DNA of 64,000 nt. Source: Thermosynechococcus sp. HN-54 (lineage in GTDB: Bacteria; Cyanobacteriota; Cyanobacteriia; Thermosynechococcales; Thermosynechococcaceae). Every line of letters begins with the position of its first letter. Positions within the stretch are counted from its first letter, which is position 1. Both the position numbers and the translations under genes were made by a program. The stretch lies in assembly GCF_023650955.1 (NCBI RefSeq), contig NZ_CP098039.1, positions 1,054,001-1,118,000 on the forward strand. The letters run 5' to 3'. Below are positions 17,122 to 47,281 of this stretch, one piece after another. Below the pieces are notes generated by a model. It was not told where the DNA came from. It made no database searches and worked only from the letters and a program-made list of their open reading frames with translations.

Positions 17122-20100
17122 CTACCATGGGTTGCCAACTATTGTAAAGGCTGCCCAGAAATAGGGATGACTGAGGGAGCGATCGCCCACAGCAACTTCT
17201 GGCGGCAAGGGAATCCCCCCACGCAGGGTTCGCAGTTCATTACCCTTCACCTGAATATCTCCGCGAAGCATCGCCAACTGGGCTTGGCGTAGCGCCTCCG
17301 CCTTGATGGGTACCCTATTCAACTGATTGTAAAAACCTGTCATTAAAGCCAATGTTCCCTCATCGCTGACGTACCACAAACTGGCCAGCACCGACTTCAC
17401 CCCAGACTGCGCAGATAGACCTGCAAACCCCAGCTCGGCATCCAAATCACCCACCGCTGTGCGGCAGGCACTCAATGTCAGTAACTCCGTTTCCGGGCGG
17501 TACAGGCGTAAATTCCGCAACTGCAATAAATTCAACCGCCCATCAGTAAAGGCAATGTAGGAGTTTTCAGGAGAGCCCGGCTGAAACTCGCCATGAGTGG
17601 CTAAGTGGATGATTTGATAAGTTCCCTGCCGATGCTGTCGCTCCAAGTTGGGAATTGTAAAGTCCGCATTGAGAAACTGAGTGCCGCCTCCTAAATCCTG
17701 GGTAATTTGGGCTAGCTCAACAGGCACAGCGGGTAAGGGAGACTGATCTTTGAACTCCGATGCCCCCATCGCCAGAATCCGTCCCTGTTGGATATTGCGG
17801 TAACGGGTATCCATGAGGCTCATACTGGGCACCAAGGCCATGCTAAAGCGCTCAATCAAGAAGCCCTTGTCATCATGGAGCGCTGCCACGGGAATTCCCC
17901 GCATGCCACTGTCTAGGACAAAGACCAACGTCTCTATCCCTTGGGCATCTAGCTGCGGACGCAAGGGCGCAATCAGCCATTGGTAGAGTTGCTGTGAGGC
18001 AGGCAGGTAGGCACGGGTATTGACTAAGCGTGGGTCACGGACGCTATTTGTAAATCGATCCACCGTTTTTAGGAGTTGCTCACGCCCCACTCCCCGCACA
18101 GGTACGTGAATTGGCTCACCCTCTGGCGTCACCATCATCAAATCCAGTTGATCTGGTCGTGCCAAAGTGTAGAGGACTGCTGGTTTCTTCCCTGTTTGCT
18201 TAGCAATTTCATTCAGTGCGGCTTGGAGAGCTTCAATGGATAATTCCTCCTTACCACAGGGACGACCAAAGTAACTTGTGACCTCTTCACAGCCTCGCTG
18301 GTCTAACAGGGCAAGGGCACGGCCGAGATCATTACTCGCTAGTGCAATTTCAATCTCTGTTGTTAAAAGAATGGACGTTGACTCAGTGGGTACCGTTGGA
18401 GGTACATAGGGAACAGGAGAGGGCACTTGCAAAAGTGTATTTGTTTCCTGCTCAGGAATCGTGGCAATATTTTGACCAGTATTCTCAAAACGAATATTCC
18501 CTACTTCAACAAGCCCTGACAAAGTTCTAGGCGGCGCAATAGTGGAATTCTCAGACTGAATAGCCCCTGCTGTTCCATTGAGAGCAGGACTTCCCACTAG
18601 GAATGGCGTCTCATTATTGATGAAGATATTGACCGAGCGGCCAAATATACTAGTGGGAACCCCATTGCGATCAAAGGTTCCTAAACCACGCAATGAATTC
18701 GCAGCATTAATGTCAATCCTGCCGGTGCCAGCGTTTATCCAATCAAAAACAATATTACCGCCACTCAAGTTAACATTTCCACCATTGGTGGCTAAGCTGT
18801 CCAAGGTTAGATTGCCGCTAGGTATAGCACGATTAGTTAATAGCCCCCGCAGCGTTAAGCTGCCATTGAGAATTGAATCAATCGTATATTCAAATGTTTG
18901 AACAGTAAAGTTACCCGTTTGTGCCAAGAAGCTACCACCATTTGTAAAAATATTACCCGTGGTGATATTTGGGGCAAAGAGACTGGCACTACCCCCACTG
19001 CCAGCAGTATTAATGCTTCCAGTAGTCAATTGCCCACTATAGGACACAGCATCGAAGTTACCACCTCCAGTTGTAATATTTCCTGTGGTAATACCCGTGA
19101 TCGAGTCAAGGTAAACAAAACCACCATTGCTGTCGATATTGCCAGTTGAAATGCTTGCACCACGGGAAAAGACAGCGATCGCTCCCCCTGCACTGAGCAG
19201 ATTGCCGAGAGTAATATCATTAGGAGCAACCACACGAATGATACTACTACTCTGACTTACTTGTAAGTTACCAGCAGTAATGTTAAATGCGGAGTCTAGA
19301 CTAATACCTGAACTCGTAATTACATTGTTCAGTTGAATATTCCCAAAAGCATTGATGGTTAGACTCGCAGTGTTAATTGTTCCTGAAACTTTAGTTTGGC
19401 CTGTTGAGTTAATCGTTAAGGAATGGTTACCATTAATATTACCATTGAATGTAACATTTCCGCCTGAAAAGCTGGTTGAGTTCAGTAGAGTTGTATTACC
19501 ACTGAATTGAATACTGCCTGAAAACGCACTAACTAAACCTCCAAGCGAAATTGTTCCTCCACTACTCTGTAAGTTAATACTTCCCCCTAATGTAGAGAGA
19601 ACAGTGCCACTAGAGGGCAGAAGGATATTACCACTCGCTTGGAGGGTGATATTTGCGCTATTAGTTTGGATGGGAGCATTCGCACTAATATTTGTTGCAC
19701 TGATATGAATTGGATTATCGAAAGATGGGTGATTCCGAATCACCCCCTGTGCTTGCAATACCAAGCTCCCCTGAAGAGAGATGGGGTAGCCAATGATGAT
19801 ATTATTATCAGCCTGTAGCGTGAGCGAGTTTGTCGAGCTGCTAGAAATTGGGGTTTCGACATAAATATTGCCAGTGCTATTTGCAGTACTGGCTGTTGTT
19901 ATAATCACGTTTGTAGAATTGAGTGCTGATAATAGTGTTCCTATAGTCAACTGAGACAATGGATAAAAACCTGATGCTGCTTCAAAGGGTGGAGAAGAGG
20001 TAATGTTGAAGTTATTTATGCTATCAATGATATAGATGTCTGTCGGATCAAGTAATAGGGTTCCTGTATTGCCATGGGGGGCAGTGGTATCAACTGTGCC

Positions 20101-21366
20101 TTGAAAATCAAGCAACTGCTTGCCAGAAACTTCGACAAAGCCACCGTCTCCGCTGAGAGCGCCTCCGCGCGCGCTCATTTGACCATAGAAACGGGTGCTG
20201 TTGTCTGCCCAGTTGATAATCGTACCGCCATTGCCGTGGTTGAGGGCATTGGCATTCAAGACAGTCCCAGCATTCACGAAAAGATTTTCTGCGTTGAAGC
20301 TAGAATCCAAGCGATTGGTTCCTGTTGTTCCTCCTAAATAATCACCCCCAACAAGAATCGTGCCGCCCCCTGTAGCGCCCGCAGCAGTGAGTTGAGTATT
20401 GAGGAGGGCGATATTACTGCCGTAGCCAGCAATGGTGATTTTCCCACCGGCGCCTGTGGCACTGCTCACATCAATGGTGCCACCAATGACAGCTGTGTTG
20501 CTGGTCAGGGGAATCTTGGTACTGTCGTGCACCAAACGAATGGTGCCATCAGGGTTGCGGATGACACTATTGACACTTGGATAGCCATTTCCTCCCGTGA
20601 GTAAAGTCGGTAAATCCGTGGCTGGGATGGTGCCTTCAGCGGGTAATCGCTCTTGGGGAATTTCAAGGCTGAGGAGCATCCCCTCTTGGGCAACACGCAC
20701 AAGTCCTGATTCGGGGACAGCGACAACATTAACTGTTCCCCCGCCTGCCGCTAGGGTACCTGTATTGATCACCTGATGTGCCATCAGGGTCAGGGATTGA
20801 CCAGCATTGACCCTAAGATTGCCTTCATTAATCAGGAGGCCTTTACTGGCAAATTCAAAGCCAATCGGCGAGCCATTAAGTTGGCTGTAGGTGTTTGAAC
20901 CATTGAGATCAAAGAGGCCATTGCCAAAGTGAACGCGCTGGGCTGTCGAGGCATGGAACGCCGCTGGTAGATTCAACTGCGCATTCGAACCAAAGACAAT
21001 ACCCGCAGGATTCAGGAGATAAAGATTACTGTTGCCCCCTGTTACTTGTAGTAAGCCATTGATATAGCTGGCACGACCGCCATTGACGCCAGCGAGAATG
21101 TTTTGAATGTGTGGCGTAGAAAGAAAGTTGGCAGTTTGTCCCTGCTGGACGTTGAAGTCGTGGAACAGGTGAAAGAGGTTTTGGCCATTCCCCGAAAACT
21201 GTCCACCACCAATGTTGAACTGATTGTTGACGGTTTCTACGGTGGTGCCGGTGGTATTGGGAGCGGGGGTGATTTGAGCCAGTAGCGGTGGCGCAAGAAG
21301 AGAGACGAGGCCGGTCAAGCTAACTAAAGTACGGGAAAACACACTCGGTAAGAACTGAGAGGCCAT
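17122..21366 (-). CDS. Two-partner-secretion exoprotein with C-terminal CHAT protease domain
   Basis: A 1414-residue protein. A signal peptide (LVSLTGLVSLLAPPLLAQ) is followed by a filamentous-haemagglutinin-type TPS domain (FNIGGGQFSGNGQNLFHLF, then NLYLLNPAGIVFG), the address for export through a TpsB/Omp85 pore. Residues about 250-1000 are low-complexity N/S/T/G-rich repeats expected to form a beta-helix. The last 350 residues are a CHAT (caspase-HetF-associated) domain with the catalytic pair: His in HLATHGEF (about residue 1257) and Cys in LSACRTAVG (about residue 1300). It would be a surface or secreted caspase-like protease or adhesin. No tpsB gene is in the window. A hairpin with a T run lies just upstream of the start. 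Confidence 0.85.
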   Translation of the reverse strand: MASQFLPSVFSRTLVSLTGLVSLLAPPLLAQITPAPNTTGTTVETVNNQFNIGGGQFSGNGQNLFHLFHDFNVQQGQTANFLSTPHIQNILAGVNGGRASYINGLLQVTGGNSNLYLLNPAGIVFGSNAQLNLPAAFHASTAQRVHFGNGLFDLNGSNTYSQLNGSPIGFEFASKGLLINEGNLRVNAGQSLTLMAHQVINTGTLAAGGGTVNVVAVPESGLVRVAQEGMLLSLEIPQERLPAEGTIPATDLPTLLTGGNGYPSVNSVIRNPDGTIRLVHDSTKIPLTSNTAVIGGTIDVSSATGAGGKITIAGYGSNIALLNTQLTAAGATGGGTILVGGDYLGGTTGTNRLDSSFNAENLFVNAGTVLNANALNHGNGGTIINWADNSTRFYGQMSARGGALSGDGGFVEVSGKQLLDFQGTVDTTAPHGNTGTLLLDPTDIYIIDSINNFNITSSPPFEAASGFYPLSQLTIGTLLSALNSTNVIITTASTANSTGNIYVETPISSSSTNSLTLQADNNIIIGYPISLQGSLVLQAQGVIRNHPSFDNPIHISATNISANAPIQTNSANITLQASGNILLPSSGTVLSTLGGSINLQSSGGTISLGGLVSAFSGSIQFSGNTTLLNSTSFSGGNVTFNGNINGNHSLTINSTGQTKVSGTINTASLTINAFGNIQLNNVITSSGISLDSAFNITAGNLQVSQSSSIIRVVAPNDITLGNLLSAGGAIAVFSRGASISTGNIDSNGGFVYLDSITGITTGNITTGGGNFDAVSYSGQLTTGSINTAGSGGSASLFAPNITTGNIFTNGGSFLAQTGNFTVQTFEYTIDSILNGSLTLRGLLTNRAIPSGNLTLDSLATNGGNVNLSGGNIVFDWINAGTGRIDINAANSLRGLGTFDRNGVPTSIFGRSVNIFINNETPFLVGSPALNGTAGAIQSENSTIAPPRTLSGLVEVGNIRFENTGQNIATIPEQETNTLLQVPSPVPYVPPTVPTESTSILLTTEIEIALASNDLGRALALLDQRGCEEVTSYFGRPCGKEELSIEALQAALNEIAKQTGKKPAVLYTLARPDQLDLMMVTPEGEPIHVPVRGVGREQLLKTVDRFTNSVRDPRLVNTRAYLPASQQLYQWLIAPLRPQLDAQGIETLVFVLDSGMRGIPVAALHDDKGFLIERFSMALVPSMSLMDTRYRNIQQGRILAMGASEFKDQSPLPAVPVELAQITQDLGGGTQFLNADFTIPNLERQHRQGTYQIIHLATHGEFQPGSPENSYIAFTDGRLNLLQLRNLRLYRPETELLTLSACRTAVGDLDAELGFAGLSAQSGVKSVLASLWYVSDEGTLALMTGFYNQLNRVPIKAEALRQAQLAMLRGDIQVKGNELRTLRGGIPLPPEVAVGDRSLSHPYFWAAFTIVGNPW

Positions 21367-21478: not shown

Positions 21479-23329
21479 TTAAAATAGGGTGCTGAGAACT
21501 GAGCGTAATTTGAAGCGGAGGGCGATCGCCGTCAGGTTATCGTGACCGTTGACTTGATTGCCGATATCAATGAGTTTATGCAGGGACTGATGGAGGGGGA
21601 TACTAAAATCCAGCATTGGCACTAAATGACTGATAATGTGGGTTTCGAGGCAGCGGTTGTCCGAAAGGCCATCTGAGCACAGTAGAATCAGCGTGTCTTC
21701 TTCAATGTCCAAGTCTATGACCTCAGGTGCAATGGCCTCATTATTGCGGGGTCCAAGGGCTTGGGTGAGTTGATAGGCATCGGGGCGACTGTAGGCAATT
21801 TCAGGTTCTACCCCCTGCTGAATCAGGCGTTGACCGACTTCGTGATCAATGGTGAGTTGTTGGAGTCCTTGACGTTTCGTAAAGCGGTAAACGCGACTAT
21901 CGCCGACATGTCCAAAGCGGAGGTGGTAGTTATGCAGTAGAGCCATGACGAGAGTGGTTCCCATGCGACCACTACCCATTTTGGCTTTTTGATCATTGGT
22001 GGCAAAAATGACTTCATTGGCTCGGTAAATGGCCTTGCGTACCTCTTCGGCGCTAGGGAGTTCTCCCTGCCATGGCCACGTCTGTTCAAAGTACTCATAG
22101 ACGGTTTTCGTTGCAAGGGAGCTAGCGACTTCTCCTTCAGCATGGCCGCCCATGCCATCACAGAGCACGTATAGTCCCTGAACATCCAGTTGCTGCCCTT
22201 GGGGGGTGAGACGCACCTGTTGCCGATGGTTGATGAGGTAAAAATCCTCGTTGTGGTGGCGATCGCGCCCGGTATCGGTCTGCGCAGCAACATCCACCTG
22301 TACCAGTTGGCGTGGTAAGAGAGCAGTCGGTGCATCTTCAATAGCGGTGTGATCCTCCGCCGCTGTGAGTGTGATCTCTGGCAATTCATCAATCAGATTG
22401 CCCGTACTTTCACCTTCTTCGGCCCCAAGGTCTGGCAGAGGTGCACTGCGCAGGGTGGAGGCAAGGGAGTCGAGCAACAGTTGGATTTCTGAGATTTTCT
22501 CAAGGGGAGCTGTGCTCAAGGACACCAAGAGCGGCATGAAAACAGATTGACGGCGATTAGAGGCATGGGCAAATAATTCTTGCCAGACACTGGTGAGACT
22601 AGGAGGCGCTGTAGGGTGCTCGAAGGTTTCTACCAAAGGCAAGGTAAAGTCCAGTTGATGCAGCCGCAATTGGTCGTCAGGGTTGACGGCCAAGTTCCTG
22701 ATGGTCAGCAATGAATAGTGACAGTGCCACGGCTCCAAGACTTTCCAGAGTTCAATCATGTCCTCTAGATACTGAAAAATTTGCTCATCGGCAATGTTGT
22801 CGTCTGCCCAAACATCCCTGAGAGGGCGAGTGGCGTGATTGTAGTCAAGGATAATGCCGTGGCAGTAGTTGGCGGGCAGGTTGCTTGTGGAAACCGTATC
22901 TAACCATGCATCGTGAATCGCCGGAATGGTTTCCGGATAAACAAGGTGCAAGGCGAGGTAGGCGATCGCCACCGCACTGAGATCAGGGTATTGCGATTGC
23001 AAATGAGGAATGACCACACTGGGGTCGAGAATGTTTAGCCCCTGTGCCCACTCCTGAGCGGTTTCACGGAGGGCTTCTAATAGGGTTGGTTCCTCAGGCT
23101 GTAGATCCTGCACTAGTTGCGGCAAATCACAGGCATAACGATGATCCCAGCGTTGGTAGCGGTGCTGTGGGTCAAAAAAGGCGGCGGCATTGGGAGGATT
23201 GGTGTCCTGCTCAAACACAGTTCCCTCAGAGTTGCGGTGGGGGACAGCCAAAATGGGGTGATCGGTATAGGCAGGATAGAGGACGCCCCACCAAAGTTTG
23301 AGGTTTTGATTGGTTTGAGTGGTCGGCAT
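21479..23329 (-). CDS. PP2C-family serine/threonine phosphatase with N-terminal kinase-like region
   Basis: A 616-residue protein. The C-terminal 260 residues are a PP2C (PPM) phosphatase with the metal-binding motifs in order: TDTGRDRHHNEDFY, YVLCDGMGGHAEGEVAS, GRMGTTLVMALLH, GHVGDSRVYRF and DTLILLCSDGLSD. The N-terminal 340 residues recall a degenerate protein-kinase C-lobe (AIHDAWLD..., NYCHGIILDYNHATRP), but no intact HRD or DFG motif is visible. That architecture is known from cyanobacterial phosphatases that sense through an inactive kinase-like part. The target is unknown. It dephosphorylates Ser/Thr using two Mn or Mg ions. Confidence 0.88.
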   Translation of the reverse strand: MPTTQTNQNLKLWWGVLYPAYTDHPILAVPHRNSEGTVFEQDTNPPNAAAFFDPQHRYQRWDHRYACDLPQLVQDLQPEEPTLLEALRETAQEWAQGLNILDPSVVIPHLQSQYPDLSAVAIAYLALHLVYPETIPAIHDAWLDTVSTSNLPANYCHGIILDYNHATRPLRDVWADDNIADEQIFQYLEDMIELWKVLEPWHCHYSLLTIRNLAVNPDDQLRLHQLDFTLPLVETFEHPTAPPSLTSVWQELFAHASNRRQSVFMPLLVSLSTAPLEKISEIQLLLDSLASTLRSAPLPDLGAEEGESTGNLIDELPEITLTAAEDHTAIEDAPTALLPRQLVQVDVAAQTDTGRDRHHNEDFYLINHRQQVRLTPQGQQLDVQGLYVLCDGMGGHAEGEVASSLATKTVYEYFEQTWPWQGELPSAEEVRKAIYRANEVIFATNDQKAKMGSGRMGTTLVMALLHNYHLRFGHVGDSRVYRFTKRQGLQQLTIDHEVGQRLIQQGVEPEIAYSRPDAYQLTQALGPRNNEAIAPEVIDLDIEEDTLILLCSDGLSDNRCLETHIISHLVPMLDFSIPLHQSLHKLIDIGNQVNGHDNLTAIALRFKLRSVLSTLF

Positions 23330-41515: not shown

Positions 41516-43261
41516 CTATTGCCAAAGATTTGCAAATTCTTGGTAGGGAATATGGCGGCTACAGTACCACAGCACGGTATAGGGTGGCATCAGGTAGGGT
41601 TCTTCTTGCGCCTTGAAAACTGCAATTTTCTGGCAAACCCACGGGATGACTGTGGTTGAGATGTAGGGGGTTAGGGGCTGTTGCAATTCATCGAGAGCTG
41701 CTAAGCCATAGTACAAGCCGAGAATATCTTGGGTGTCTTGAGCCTTCACCACTAGCGATCGCAGGGTTTCCAACACAAGCGGATCTTCAGGGGCAATGTG
41801 GTGGAGGGCACGCACAGCGGCCATTAGTGTATCTAGATCGTAGGCCTGCTGCTGAATAATTAACCTAAGGGTCTTCAGGGCTTGATCATGGCCAAGACTG
41901 ACGATGCCAAGGGCGCAGGCGAGGGCAATCTGATGGGACTGCACTGTTGCCAAACCTAAATAACGTTCTAGCCGGGCAATGACCTCCCACTGACGAACCC
42001 CTGCAAGGTGTAAACACCGACTGGCAAGAATCACATCCTCAAGGTAGGAGGAGTGACGAAAAATCTCCAAGGTAGCATTCGTGGCTTCAACTGCCCAGTG
42101 TCCCTGCGCAGTGATCAAAACAGCGGCAGCTGTGAGTTTTAGGCGATGGGGCTGTTGGGGATGCTGGAGCAACCGCTGTAAAAATTGCTGCAAGCGTCCC
42201 CCGGTGGTACTTTGCCAGACACTCTGGATCATCTTGCAGCGCTTGGGGTCTCAGTTGTGCCAGTTCTAGTTGCCAGCGACACCAGTAGAGGAAGTTGGGG
42301 AATTCAGAGACTGTTGAAGAAGGGCGATCGCCCCTAGACACATCAACCGTAACAGGATGTGCTGCTGATCGGCGTAGATGGTGCCAGTGGGGGCAGCGCG
42401 CTTGGGGGTGACGACAAATTAGGGGCAGCGCCGATGTTCCTGGCAAATACTCATCACAGCGACTCAGTTCTCGCAATTGCGATCGCCCTTGCGCCACCGC
42501 AGCGTAGAGATCGGCACCCGCATGGAAACTCTGCAAAAAGTATTTCAAAAACAACTCAGCAGCAATATTGGGAACCACTTCGCGCATGACAATGGCATGG
42601 GGTAATCCCAGCTGAATCAAGAACCGCCCAAGAGGAATACTGTCGCAAGAGTTAAAGATGGCCAGTTGCAACCCCTGATCCACCGCATGTTGAAACGTGC
42701 GATAAAGCTGCTGGATCTCTAATTGTTTTTGCTCATCGTTGAGATGAAGGCCATTGCCCTGACTGTGCCCCGCATAGAAAAGAATGTCCCAAGACTCTCG
42801 CCACATGCAGGGGACTTCAGGGAGCGATACACCATCGGCGAAAAGACGACATCTACATTGGTGTGTTGGCGAATCGGTAACCAATCGTGCCATGGATAGT
42901 GCCATAGTTTAACAAAATCTGTCTGAACAAAAATGCGATGTACCTCGCTCATCGGCGGCAAGATAAAGTTACCTAGGCCAAAAAATGAGTTACTCTCCGC
43001 TTGGGGAAAACCGATGCGGGTATTGTTCAGCCAAGTGCCAAGGGTGGTCACTAGGGCAGTGTACTTTTGCGACAGCTCATACAGCAGATGGGGTTGCTGA
43101 GTGCCAATATTCGTAATTTGGTTACCGCTAGCCCCCAGACGCGCATTGCGCACATAGCCATGATAGCTGCCTCGCCACTGCTGATATTCCTGAGGGAGGT
43201 GGGGCATTGCCGGAAACTCCACAGAATACACCCCATACAGAAGTGTTGAATTCTGCAACAA
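41516..43261 (-). pseudogene. CHAT domain (caspase-like) gene, broken by deletion and frame changes
   Basis: Three reading frames together encode one protein. Part 1 (43261 to about 42830) is the N-terminal region (LPQEYQQWRGSYHGYV, PWHDWLPIRQHTNVDVVFSP). Part 2 (about 42830 to 42200) is the CHAT protease core with catalytic His in WDILFYAGHSQG and Cys in IFNSCDSIPLG. Part 3 (from about 42200 to 41516) is an Ala/Leu-rich HEAT-like tail (LASRCLHLAGVRQWEVIARLERYLGL). Compared with intact homologues about 65 residues seem missing at the first join. The second frame change falls in a run of five C at 42198-42202; losing one restores HRGRLQQFLQRL. The first codons of the gene were probably removed by the IS insertion. 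Part 3 could instead be a separate gene starting at ATG 42232. Confidence 0.7.
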
Positions 43262-44079
43262 AACTTAATCAGTTGCAAATATCGCAATTTGTCTAATAGC
43301 TTCCTGCCAAAGTATTCAGGTATCTCCATTAGCTCTAAAATTAAGTACCCAATCAAAACCATATAAATCTGATTTATCACCCCATTCAAACTCTTCGTAA
43401 TCAGCTTGTCTAATGATAAATGCATCTTTAGAAACTTCCATAAGTTCTCAATCCCCCACCGATGCCGATACAGCTCACTCACTTCCTCATCACTTAGATG
43501 CATTAGATTCGTCGCAATACGAAACTCTGTTCCATGCTCATCAAAAAATTGAACCACTCGGTATCTCTCATGATTGAGCTTCATTCTCATGTTATTCTTG
43601 ATACGCACAACAAATAAACACTTCCTCTCACTCAGCCGCTCTAAAAATCTCCAACTCGCAAACCCTCTATCCATGATGGCAACGGCATTCTCAGGGATCA
43701 TTTCTAAAATCTCGTCTTGAAAGCTTAGGTCATGTCTCTCCCCAAAAGAGACTACTGCCTTACCCAGGATGTTCTCTGTTAAATCAAATCCTGTAATTAA
43801 CTTCACTTGATGGTATTTGTAGAACCAAAAGAGCTTACTCGTCAGGGTAATGACGGTTGAATCAATAGGAAACAGCATCAGACTTGAACAACGATGTCTC
43901 TTGCGAGCTTGAGACATGAGATGAGTGTAAATCCTCTCAAATAAGGTGGTTGTTCGAGTTTTGTTCGCCTTGGATAAATTAAGTACCCAATCAAAACCAT
44001 ATAAATCTGATTTATCACCCCATTCAAACTCTTCGTAATCAGCTTGTCTAATGATAAATGCATCTTTAGAAACTTCCAT
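43051..44079 (-). pseudogene. IS4-family transposase, 3' copy (disrupted)
   Basis: This frame enters from the tail of the right-hand copy, then reads a transposase body (SKANKTRTTTLFERIYTHL onward) and the native C-terminal part LILELMEIPEYFGRKLLDKLRYLQL. The DDE catalytic elements are visible: Asp in FPIDSTVIT, Asp in AIMDRGFASWRF, and the YREK signature Y-x2-R-x3-E-x6-K in YRHRWGIENLWKFLK, which marks the IS4 family. It lacks the true N-terminus and reads on into the CHAT gene in a foreign frame after about position 43255. Confidence 0.75.
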
Positions 44080-44612
44080 AAGTTCTCAATCCCCCACCGA
44101 TGCCGATACAGCTCACTCACTTCCTCATCACTTAGATGCATTAGATTCGTCGCAATACGAAACTCTGTTCCATGCTCATCAAAAAATTGAACCACTCGGT
44201 ATCTCTCATGATTGAGCTTCATTCTCATGTTATTCTTGATACGCACAACAAATAAACACTTCCTCTCACTCAGCCGCTCTAAAAATCTCCAACTCGCAAA
44301 CCCTCTATCCATGATGGCAACGGCATTCTCAGGGATCATTTCTAAAATCTCGTCTTGAAAGCTTAGGTCATGTCTCTCCCCAAAAGAGACTACTGCCTTA
44401 CCCAGGATGTTCTCTGTTAAATCAAATCCTGTAATTAACTTCACTTGATGGTATTTGTAGAACCAAAAGAGCTTACTCGTCAGGGTAATGACGGTTGAAT
44501 CAATAGGAAACAGCATCAGACTTGAACAACGATGTCTCTTGCGAGCTTGAGACATGAGATGAGTGTAAATCCTCTCAAATAAGGTGGTTGTTCGAGTTTT
44601 GTTCGCCTTGGA
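43338..44612. repeat. Tandem direct duplication, unit 638 bp
   Basis: The stretch 43338-43974 is repeated at 43976-44612 with a constant offset of 638. The translations of the two copies are identical over the whole shared part, and the nucleotide sequence looks identical by eye. Because 638 is not a multiple of three, the duplication breaks the transposase frame. Confidence 0.9.
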
Positions 44613-44723
44613 AAACGTGGACATATCCACTGTAATCCCCGAATGATTCAAGCGATAAAATAAGGCTCTCATGCTGGTTAATCCTTGGTCGAGAATGTAG
44701 GTCAACCAGATTTTGAAGAACAA
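43878..44723 (-). pseudogene. IS4-family transposase, 5' copy (disrupted)
   Basis: This frame has the native N-terminal part (FFKIWLTYILDQGLTSMRALFYRLNHSGI, in two blocks) and the full DDE core. At position 43976 it crosses the duplication joint and continues out of frame as YPRRTKLEQPPYLRG before stopping. Codons in frame upstream of the TTG at 44723 (CDYPVLNSQ) also look like transposase, so the true start lies further right, inside what is now the end of the DUF1822 frame. Confidence 0.75.
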
Positions 44724-45781
44724 TTGAGAGTTGAGGACGGGGTAGTCGCAAGGGCTGAACGCAAGCCGTCATCAGCAGTGGTGGCAATCAGATCTTTGAG
44801 GAGGGCAACCGCTTGGCGGCAATCTTCGGTTTCTAAGGCTTGGCGTAATTGCGCTTGAGCTTGCATTGCCTGTAATGTGTCGTTGGAGCGCAATGCCCAC
44901 TCTGGAGCAGTCCACCCTAGTTTCCAACTGATGTAGGGATTGAGCATCGCCCCCTCCGCAAGCAGCTCCTGCACCTCTTGCCACCCTTGATCCACTAGGT
45001 TCCGTATCCCCATGGTCTTGGCGTAAAGCCATAGACTCAACCGCTGCGGATGACAGGCCAAAAAGAGATCAAGGCGATGGCGAGGTGAACCAATGATTTG
45101 TAACCATTCCTCTAGGGGCAAGGTTAAACGGGGTAGGAGAATTTCACCACTGACGATTTGCTGAAAGGTGGCTGTGGGAATGGCAGTTGCCGCAGGTGAT
45201 CGAACAGGGATGTGATGGCATGCCGGCAAGGCAGCAAGGAGGGGCACATCTTCGATCATGTCCTCCCGCTCTAGGCTATAGGTGCGACTGAAGGTGTCCA
45301 CAGTAGCACGATTCACACTGCTGCTAGGGGCGTAGCCCCAGAGCCTGACTTGAGCCGCTTCAGCCAATACTTGCACGCCGAGAATGTAGTCGGGTTTCCA
45401 TGCGGGAATGTTCAGCCATTCCAGAGGAATGCGGCACTCATCAAGATCTATTGCGGTATCGGGCACACTTAGGACATTTCCTATGGGTGTCTTCAGCAGG
45501 GTGCCGTTGACAAACTCCCAAAAGAGCGGCAGCTCAACAGTCGGCAGGAAGGGGTCGGCACTCATGCCCATCTCCGCAAACCAGTGCCGCACAGCTGCAT
45601 AGGCCATGGCATTCATCTGAACGCTACCGCGACGATAGGCACGGGCAGCTGCGGTGATCTGCTCAATCCACTGGCGATCGCCACAATCGGCTAAATCAAG
45701 GTGAACATGTTCTATGTCTTCTATGGGCGCTATCGAGGGCGCATCTATGGTGGTTAGAAACGAAAGTGATGGGGATATCAT
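44702..45781 (-). CDS. DUF1822 family protein (3' end altered by IS insertion)
   Basis: A 359-residue cytosolic protein of the cyanobacterial DUF1822 family, function unknown. Typical features are the N-terminal AMAYAAVRHWFAEMGM, the central LPLFWEFVNGTLLKTPIGNVLSVP and DLDECRIPLEWLNIPAWKPDYILGVQ, and the helical C-terminal half (GWQEVQELLAEGAMLNPYISWKLGWT). The last 20 or so residues (LATTPSSTLNCSSKSG) overlap the transposase in another frame and are IS-derived, so the native C-terminus is lost. Start ATG 45781, 68 bp after the sigma-like gene. DUF1822 genes are known to me between a sigma-like gene and a CHAT gene in other cyanobacteria. Confidence 0.8.
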   Translation of the reverse strand: MISPSLSFLTTIDAPSIAPIEDIEHVHLDLADCGDRQWIEQITAAARAYRRGSVQMNAMAYAAVRHWFAEMGMSADPFLPTVELPLFWEFVNGTLLKTPIGNVLSVPDTAIDLDECRIPLEWLNIPAWKPDYILGVQVLAEAAQVRLWGYAPSSSVNRATVDTFSRTYSLEREDMIEDVPLLAALPACHHIPVRSPAATAIPTATFQQIVSGEILLPRLTLPLEEWLQIIGSPRHRLDLFLACHPQRLSLWLYAKTMGIRNLVDQGWQEVQELLAEGAMLNPYISWKLGWTAPEWALRSNDTLQAMQAQAQLRQALETEDCRQAVALLKDLIATTADDGLRSALATTPSSTLNCSSKSG

Positions 45782-45848
45782 GGTTCCTTACCCAATACAA
45801 CAAGTTCTCAAGTTCATAGCGTTTTCAATGAAGGCAAGATTCAAGCCC

Positions 45849-46997
45849 CTAGCCGCATAACGAGCGCGTTATGTTACTCACCCGACCACACCGCTGACAA
45901 GACACTGCTGGCTCTTTATAGCCCTCCTCTAGCCATAGATTTACGACCGCTGTTACCTCCTTGAGGTGTTGAGTATTCGCGGGTTGATTAAAGGCGAGGA
46001 GCACTTCTTTCGCCAAATGACCACGAATCCGCTCCAGTTCGCGAGACACTTGATACTGTTTTTCAAACCCCAGTTGCCGGGCAATTTGTTCTTGACTGAC
46101 CTGCTCGCAATAGTACAGACAAAACACCTGACGACTGGCGTCATCCAGTGCTTCAACCGCATTTTTCAGCATTTCAAAGACCCGTTTGAGGGTTTCCTGT
46201 TCTTCCTGTTTCAGGATTGCTTCCCAAGGGCTATTTGCTTCTCCTTCTAGTTCTAGGGTGTCCCAAAACCTTTGCTCAGCAGTATGCACCACCTGCGAGG
46301 CACGCAAGGCGGCGATCGCCTTTCGCAGTAGTGTTTCAACTTGGCTAGGAGCCAACGGGGGCAAATCACGGCAGCACTGGCTGTAGGTTTGGGCGAGTTG
46401 ACCCAGAAGCCCCTGATCCGGAGGCGCAGGCTCAGCCACCAAGTTCTGCCAGAGGTAAACAAGGCGTTCAATTTGGCGGACGTGATGTTCTGGGTATCCC
46501 TGTAATTGCAGCGCTGAGGCAAGACGACGGCGGCCTGCCTGTTTGAGCAACCCCCAATCCGATTGCCGTGTCCCTACCAAGGCATCATAAACACGGTCAT
46601 AGATACGGCGATAGGCATAGGTGGACAGCCGCGTACCGCGCTGGGGATTAAATCCCCGCAATAACTTGAGGGGATCGCTGGTGAGATAGCAGGCCTGCTG
46701 AAAACAGTCAGCGAGCTGATGTTCCCGTGCAACTTTGTCCCGCAGTTTCATCGCTACGGACCAACTCGTCTCTTGGAGGTAGCAAAACAGTGCCTGCCGC
46801 CAGTAGGGAGCAGCGGGATTATGGGGTTGATTCTGCAAGTTTTGGAAGAGCTGGATAGCGGTTGTGTGGGGTTCTCCTAACTCGTACCCCGCATTCGTGA
46901 GATATTTCTCTAGTCTGCGATCGCACAACCAGCGCCGGCGATCGCCAGTGTCCAATTGGAGAAAAGCAACGAGTTTATAGCACGGTTGGAGTGTCAT
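45849..46997 (-). CDS. Sigma-70-like transcription regulator
   Basis: About 382 residues from ATG 46997, which has GAGAG upstream; a GTG at 47060 is an alternative. A region-2-like block is visible near residues 110-140 (LKLLRGFNPQRGTRLSTYAYRRIYDRV), and a region-4 helix-turn-helix near residues 280-330 (DDASRQVFCLYYCEQVSQEQIARQLGF). The tail has a CxxC pair (CQRCG). It therefore looks like a divergent sigma factor of the group found next to DUF1822/CHAT genes in cyanobacteria. Whether it binds core polymerase is unknown. It heads the minus-strand set sigma-DUF1822-CHAT. Confidence 0.75.
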   Translation of the reverse strand: MTLQPCYKLVAFLQLDTGDRRRWLCDRRLEKYLTNAGYELGEPHTTAIQLFQNLQNQPHNPAAPYWRQALFCYLQETSWSVAMKLRDKVAREHQLADCFQQACYLTSDPLKLLRGFNPQRGTRLSTYAYRRIYDRVYDALVGTRQSDWGLLKQAGRRRLASALQLQGYPEHHVRQIERLVYLWQNLVAEPAPPDQGLLGQLAQTYSQCCRDLPPLAPSQVETLLRKAIAALRASQVVHTAEQRFWDTLELEGEANSPWEAILKQEEQETLKRVFEMLKNAVEALDDASRQVFCLYYCEQVSQEQIARQLGFEKQYQVSRELERIRGHLAKEVLLAFNQPANTQHLKEVTAVVNLWLEEGYKEPAVSCQRCGRVSNITRSLCG

Positions 46998-47281
46998 CAA
47001 TCTCTCATCCAATCTCAAAGGACAATCGTACGGGGAAGCTTGAGCGCCTGTGTTATTCACTGGCTATCCGCATACATCCTCCTGACACAACCCGCCAATG
47101 ATTTATCCAATGCCGTTGGGGGAAATATGCACTCGTTCTGCCAATTCTAGAAAAATTTTTTTATGAAACTTGGATGATGGCTTGCAACCACTCTAGCAAC
47201 TCCTAGCGTCACAGGGGAAGCATGATCTACATCACAGGGAAGTGGTGTGTTCTGTGGCACACTACAATCAAGATTTGCGAT

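What the first reader, a model, noticed from the sequence alone, without database searches (positions are those of the whole stretch)
17122..21366. Large secreted protein combines a two-partner-secretion domain with a CHAT protease domain
CHAT domains are usually cytosolic (caspase-like, defence or heterocyst related). Here the domain is at the C-terminus of an exported beta-helix with His (about 1257) and Cys (about 1300) both present. This would put a caspase-like enzyme on the cell surface, for example for kin or prey interaction or self-release of the exoprotein. It has no tpsB partner next to it.
Basis: partly seen in the sequence, partly recalled or inferred. Interest (0 to 1): 0.62.

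Follow-up and report, generated by a model that had tools for sequence, protein, structure and literature searches.

The report
Exported separase-like protease on secretion arm
A heat-loving cyanobacterium makes a very long exported protein whose tail is an apparently intact separase/caspase-type protease; the design recurs across cyanobacteria, and neither the tail's target nor which side of the outer membrane it ends up on is known.

Summary
The 1,414-aa ORF at 17122-21366(-) has a Sec-type leader, a TPS secretion domain (Pfam 2.8e-32), a beta-rich body and a C-terminal CHAT domain (1.9e-73) with His1258/Cys1301. The genome has exactly one TpsB, about 0.6 Mb away. The dyad is invariant in 46/46 TPS-CHAT relatives, 24/24 CHAT proteins without TPS, and 53/53 of a second set. 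In several relatives tpsB lies beside the TPS-CHAT gene. Non-catalytic cysteines are rare and come in close pairs (even number in 101/106 proteins), as expected outside the cytoplasm. AlphaFold of the C-terminus (pLDDT 88) matches Csx29/TPR-CHAT (Z 30.9), separase and gingipain. The interpretation needs correcting. Exported CHAT is not exceptional here: TPS-CHAT is widespread in cyanobacteria and has apparently signal-peptide-led CHAT-only cousins, one in the same syntenic slot of a congener. Since CHAT persists without the helix and the linker is not conserved, self-release is unlikely to be the main job. The TPS domain is HMW1/HxuA-like, and those C-termini stay periplasmic, so surface display is unproven. 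Best reading: an envelope protease with a modular exported beta-helix arm, cleaving another, unknown protein.

The parts
17122..21366 (-). TPS-CHAT exoprotein gene, 1414 aa
21274..21366 (-). Sec-type signal peptide, residues 1-31 (hydrophobic core then LLA-Q)
   Evidence: sequence; hydropathy heuristic, max 11-aa KD 2.25 at residue 14; no dedicated signal-peptide predictor was available
20680..21279 (-). TPS secretion domain, residues 30-229
   Evidence: Pfam PF05860 2.8e-32; phmmer to HxuA 4i84 5.9e-6 and HMW1 2odl 5.9e-4
21001..21012 (-). NPAG motif (residues 119-122), counterpart of the TpsA NPNG motif
   Evidence: sequence; NCBIfam adhes_NPXG 65-143
18457..20679 (-). beta-rich body, probable beta-helix, residues 230-970
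   Evidence: low-confidence single-sequence model; Foldseek to EtpA 3e-5
18367..18486 (-). Pro/Thr-rich unconserved linker, residues 961-1000
   Evidence: about 45% identity between congeners
18001..18366 (-). pre-CHAT (pseudo-caspase-like) region, residues 1001-1122
   Evidence: model m0229932f5271 and its matches to Csx29/separase
18256..18291 (-). Cys1026-Cys1037 pair, candidate disulfide
   Evidence: only non-catalytic Cys of the protein; both present in congeners L042/L043, both absent in L081
17131..18000 (-). CHAT protease domain, residues 1123-1412
   Evidence: Pfam PF12770 1.9e-73
17593..17595 (-). catalytic His1258
   Evidence: invariant
17464..17466 (-). catalytic Cys1301
   Evidence: invariant

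Best explanation
It is a TpsA-type exoprotein whose C-terminal cargo is an active separase/Csx29-type cysteine protease (CHAT). A Sec leader takes it to the periplasm; its HMW1/HxuA-like TPS domain is recognised by the genome's single TpsB, encoded about 0.6 Mb away; the beta-helix threads out through the outer membrane; the CHAT domain, translocated last if at all, sits at the outer membrane on its periplasmic or outer face. There it cleaves a separate envelope or neighbouring-cell protein. By analogy with Csx29 (TPR sensor) and SAVED-CHAT, the N-terminal arm would serve as sensor or targeting module and the C-terminal CHAT as effector. Shown by sequence: domains, dyad conservation, existence of TpsB, TpsB linkage in relatives, cysteine pattern, predicted fold. 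Inferred: actual export, proteolysis, location, sensor role, substrate.
For: TPS and CHAT in one uninterrupted frame. The architecture is conserved in 45 proteins from 36 other cyanobacterial genomes and in many more from genome contigs. Dyad invariant in 46/46 plus 24/24 and 53/53. Exactly one ShlB/TpsB with POTRA in the genome. The genome's only two TPS-domain proteins both carry CHAT. TpsB directly beside TPS-CHAT in 6 of 44 fetched loci (L046, L063, L064, L065, L074, L076), close in L120 and L174, and within about 2.5 kb in L170 and L178. All 36 TPS-CHAT genomes hold a ShlB match. Cysteine 0.2% against 0.97% in neighbouring ORFs. Non-catalytic Cys even in 101/106, with 74/91 within 15 aa of another (random expectation about 42 odd proteins), matching the T5SS rule of few, closely spaced cysteines (PMC8151025). 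C-terminal model pLDDT 88; VIA Z 30.9 to Craspase TPR-CHAT over 345 residues, about 24 to separases, about 19 to gingipains. Craspase TPR-CHAT has the same kind of His/Cys dyad, 42 residues apart (H585/C627, PMC9729208), against 43 here.
Against: No experiment shows export or proteolysis. TpsB presence is common in the phylum (236/292 genomes), so co-occurrence alone is weak. TpsB is also present in two draft congeners where no TPS domain was found (G295, G298). TPS passengers normally cross the outer membrane unfolded, and a 400-residue enzyme domain might not pass. The beta-helix was not modelled reliably. No substrate was identified.
Confidence: 0.62

Rival explanations
1. CHAT is a built-in release protease: the exoprotein is held at the outer membrane by its C-terminus, and CHAT cuts in cis near the linker to shed the beta-helix, a one-polypeptide version of CdrA and its periplasmic protease LapG.
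For: A TPS adhesin cut off the cell by a periplasmic cysteine protease is known (CdrA/LapG, PMC4694147). Cys pairs just upstream of CHAT recall HMW1/HxuA C-terminal anchoring (PMC5422565).
Against: No conserved site in the linker. CHAT is kept in proteins without TPS or helix, including the syntenic L081 slot. TPS presence changes at least 8 times on the CHAT tree while the dyad stays invariant.
Confidence: 0.13
2. CHAT is displayed on the cell surface or shed to act on other cells (kin or prey), a CDI-like delivered effector or extracellular protease.
For: TpsA proteins carry C-terminal toxin domains in CDI systems and the protease LepA is a TpsA (PMC5422565). Gingipains are exported caspase-fold proteases (fold match Z about 19).
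Against: No immunity-like neighbour. No exchange of C-terminal domains seen among the relatives examined, which all carry CHAT, unlike polymorphic toxins (though they were found through the CHAT end). CHAT-only proteins with apparent leaders lack any outer-membrane export signal that I could see.
Confidence: 0.15
3. The CHAT domain is a non-catalytic binding or plug module at the end of an adhesin.
For: No activity data exist for this clade.
Against: Both catalytic residues and many surrounding positions are invariant across the relatives aligned.
Confidence: 0.06
4. The protein is not exported by TPS at all; the TPS part is a relic and the protein works inside the cell.
For: No adjacent tpsB; TPS part absent in some congeners.
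Against: Hydrophobic leader and TPS identity of 88% between congeners, cysteine depletion and pairing, tpsB linkage in relatives.
Confidence: 0.04

Closest known systems
Csx29 / TPR-CHAT of the type III-E CRISPR Craspase
   Same: CHAT fold with preceding pseudo-caspase region over about 345 residues (Z 30.9, rmsd 3.0 A); His/Cys dyad at similar spacing
   Different: Cytoplasmic, TPR-linked and RNA-activated; only 13% identity; here a TPS leader and beta-rich arm stand in place of the TPRs
Separase
   Same: Protease-domain fold (Z about 24) and dyad type
   Different: Eukaryotic, intracellular, helical regulatory N-terminus
HMW1 / HxuA (two-partner-secretion exoproteins)
   Same: TPS domain detectably homologous (HxuA 5.9e-6, HMW1 5.9e-4); low cysteine; Cys pair toward the C-terminus
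   Different: No CHAT domain; their Cys pair is at the extreme C-terminus, here it precedes a domain of nearly 400 aa
CdrA with LapG
   Same: A TPS adhesin controlled by a cysteine protease in the envelope (PMC4694147)
   Different: Separate proteins; LapG is transglutaminase-like, not CHAT
Gingipains (RgpB, Kgp)
   Same: Caspase-fold cysteine proteases exported to the surface; fold match Z about 19
   Different: Type IX secretion, Porphyromonas, no TPS domain
LepA-type TpsA proteases
   Same: A protease exported by two-partner secretion (listed in PMC5422565)
   Different: From my own knowledge a trypsin-like serine protease, not CHAT

Membership tests
Two-partner-secretion exoprotein (TpsA) | N-terminal TPS domain with NPxG-type motif | tested here: met
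   PF05860 2.8e-32; adhes_NPXG 9.9e-24; NPAG at residues 119-122
Two-partner-secretion exoprotein (TpsA) | Sec signal peptide before the TPS domain | tested here: inconclusive
   Hydropathy heuristic and sequence only; no dedicated predictor
Two-partner-secretion exoprotein (TpsA) | TpsB partner in the genome | tested here: met
   One ShlB + POTRA_2 protein, not adjacent; adjacent in several relatives
Two-partner-secretion exoprotein (TpsA) | Beta-helical passenger | tested here: inconclusive
   Low-confidence model, EtpA match 3e-5
Two-partner-secretion exoprotein (TpsA) | TpsB-dependent export | not testable with these tools
   Needs a tpsB knock-out and fractionation
CHAT / separase-type cysteine protease (clan CD) | CHAT/separase fold | tested here: met
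   PF12770 1.9e-73; AlphaFold model plus VIA Z 20-31
CHAT / separase-type cysteine protease (clan CD) | His-Cys catalytic dyad, conserved in the family | tested here: met
   H1258/C1301 invariant
CHAT / separase-type cysteine protease (clan CD) | Peptidase activity | not testable with these tools
   Needs biochemistry
CDI (CdiA-like) toxin delivery | Small immunity gene next to a variable C-terminal toxin | tested here: not met
   Downstream neighbour is convergent hemC, upstream is a PP2C-like gene; the syntenic full-length orthologues keep the same CHAT C-terminus
HMW1-type C-terminal disulfide anchor | Cys pair forming a disulfide loop at the C-terminus, retained in the periplasm | tested here: inconclusive
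   Pair C1026/C1037 present, but 377 residues from the end and variable in the family

The most novel reading that the evidence does not exclude
The beta-helix arm projects from the cell while the folded CHAT stays in the periplasm behind the TpsB pore, so that a binding event outside switches on a separase-like protease inside the envelope: an outside-in signalling protease made from a single polypeptide.
Probability: 0.2. Interest if true: 0.78.

Novelty: new variant of a known kind. Interest (0 to 1): 0.5.

Why it matters
The CHAT proteases studied in depth act inside the cell, in CRISPR and cell-death defence. Here a family widespread in cyanobacteria seems to put the same enzyme type outside the cytoplasm on a two-partner-secretion arm, with the catalytic residues always kept. 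In a small genome with one TpsB and only two TPS-domain proteins, both CHAT-tipped, export, location and substrate are directly testable by single-gene knock-outs.

Tried and rejected
A sequence-profile search of the PDB with the CHAT alignment found no relative (one chance match), so the relation to Csx29/separase rests on fold and Pfam. The second structure job, on the TPS plus helix part as a single sequence, gave a poor model (pLDDT 47). A universal HMW1-like anchor was considered: 21 of the 37 close Cys pairs lie 375-560 residues from the C-terminus, in about 20 of 106 proteins, the others elsewhere, so it is not a family-wide feature. A defence-system reading was considered: PADLOC gave only a weak CHAT-level match to BovA (4e-7). 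Literature searches for CHAT together with two-partner secretion or with filamentous hemagglutinin in cyanobacteria found no paper in the held library; the library lacks most subscription journals. The careful CHAT tree did not finish; the quick tree (SH-aLRT only) is cited.

Full report
What is there. The ORF at 17122-21366(-) encodes 1,414 residues. Pfam finds a TPS secretion domain at 30-229 (E 2.8e-32) and a CHAT domain at 1123-1412 (E 1.9e-73). The catalytic pair is His1258 and Cys1301. The N-terminus reads as a Sec leader (MASQFLPSVFSRTLVSLTGLVSLLAPPLLAQ), judged by hydropathy only. The TPS part matches solved HxuA (5.9e-6) and HMW1 (5.9e-4). The gene lies between a PP2C-like gene plus accD and hemC plus a DUF512 gene, and this order is kept in congeners. 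The genome is a single-contig 2.7 Mb cyanobacterial genome; an 85%-identical locus from a Thermosynechococcus MAG with the same hemC/DUF512 flank (L128) points to that genus.

Is there a partner? The genome has exactly one ShlB/TpsB with POTRA, about 0.6 Mb from the gene, beside trpA and a histidine kinase. Its only two TPS-domain proteins, this one and a 1,685-aa paralogue (L008:7106-12163), both end in CHAT. A TpsB lies directly beside a TPS-CHAT gene in 6 of 44 homologous loci (L046, L063, L064, L065, L074, L076), close in L120 and L174, and within about 2.5 kb in L170 and L178. All 36 genomes from which TPS-CHAT loci were taken have a ShlB match (compare), but so do 236 of 292 genomes in the phylum sample, so this alone is weak.

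Is the enzyme intact? The dyad is invariant in 46/46 TPS-CHAT proteins and 24/24 CHAT proteins without TPS, and in all 53 sequences of a second alignment. The AlphaFold model of residues 941-1414 is confident (pLDDT 88). It aligns to Craspase TPR-CHAT (Z 30.9, 345 residues, 3.0 A), Csx29 (29.0), separases (about 24), part of the transmembrane anti-sigma factor DdvA (about 20) and gingipains (about 19). In Craspase TPR-CHAT the dyad is H585/C627 and mutating C627 abolishes cleavage (PMC9729208).

Is it outside the cytoplasm? Cysteine makes up 0.2% of TPS-CHAT residues against 0.97% in neighbouring ORFs. Beyond the catalytic Cys, the number of cysteines is even in 101 of 106 proteins (67 have none; 34 of the 39 with any have an even number), and 74 of 91 such cysteines have another within 15 residues; random placement would give about 42 odd proteins. 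These proteins are related, so the cases are not independent. T5SS proteins are described as having few, closely spaced cysteines (PMC8151025). This protein has only Cys1026 and Cys1037 besides the catalytic one; both are present in L042 and L043 and both absent in L081.

Where does CHAT end up? HMW1 and HxuA are described as keeping their C-terminus in the periplasm behind a disulfide loop (PMC5422565), which makes a periplasmic CHAT plausible. But the pair here precedes a domain of nearly 400 residues and is not family-wide, so location is open.

Modularity. In congener G179 the same syntenic slot holds a 489-aa protein with a hydrophobic leader and CHAT (69% identity to residues 999-1414) but no TPS or helix (L081). 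Other congeners show shortened versions too, some on draft contigs. On a quick CHAT tree the TPS label changes at least 8 times. Of 33 CHAT-only proteins of 430-530 aa, 91% have a strongly hydrophobic N-terminus, against 29% of other ORFs. The linker between helix and CHAT is about 45% identical between congeners against 71-88% in TPS, helix and CHAT. CHAT is therefore the constant part, which argues against self-release as its main purpose and for a separate substrate.

Mechanism. Shown: domains, intact dyad, predicted fold, a TpsB in the genome, TpsB linkage elsewhere, cysteine pattern. Inferred: Sec and TpsB export, envelope location, an arm that targets or senses, a protease that cuts another envelope or neighbouring-cell protein.

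Known or new. The parts are known, and secreted CHAT proteins have been mentioned in marine picocyanobacteria (PMC7522525). I found no paper in the held library describing TPS-CHAT fusions. CdrA/LapG (PMC4694147) is the nearest functional precedent for a TPS adhesin controlled by a cysteine protease. I rate it a new variant of a known kind, of moderate interest.

Noticed in passing
window 41516-47060 (-): A locus with a weak sigma-70 region-4 match (45849-47060), a DUF1822 protein (44702-45781), and a CHAT remnant (42087-42905) separated from it by two near-identical DDE transposase ORFs (43051-44723). A sigma factor next to a CHAT protein recalls the RpoE-Csx30-Csx29 arrangement.
   Followed up: partly
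L082, L093, L094 (one genus, G002/G207/G066) and L173: CHAT clusters: a short TPS-CHAT (about 960 aa) with a CHAT-only gene within about 10 kb, and in L082, L093 and L173 also a roughly 880-aa CHAT protein between them on the opposite strand.
   Followed up: no
L046 and L120: CHAT-only gene, tpsB and TPS-CHAT gene lie together in one locus in two distant cyanobacteria.
   Followed up: no
L009:5363-8059 and L010:4287-6383: Two TPR-CHAT proteins elsewhere in the window's genome (898 and 698 aa), the second just upstream of a histidine kinase gene.
   Followed up: no
L066:6065-17295: Two tandem TPS-CHAT genes of about 1,830 aa each.
   Followed up: no
window 21479-23329 (-): PP2C-like phosphatase domain at the C-terminus of a 616-aa protein, directly upstream of and on the same strand as the TPS-CHAT gene, order conserved in congeners; possible co-transcription not tested.
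   Followed up: partly
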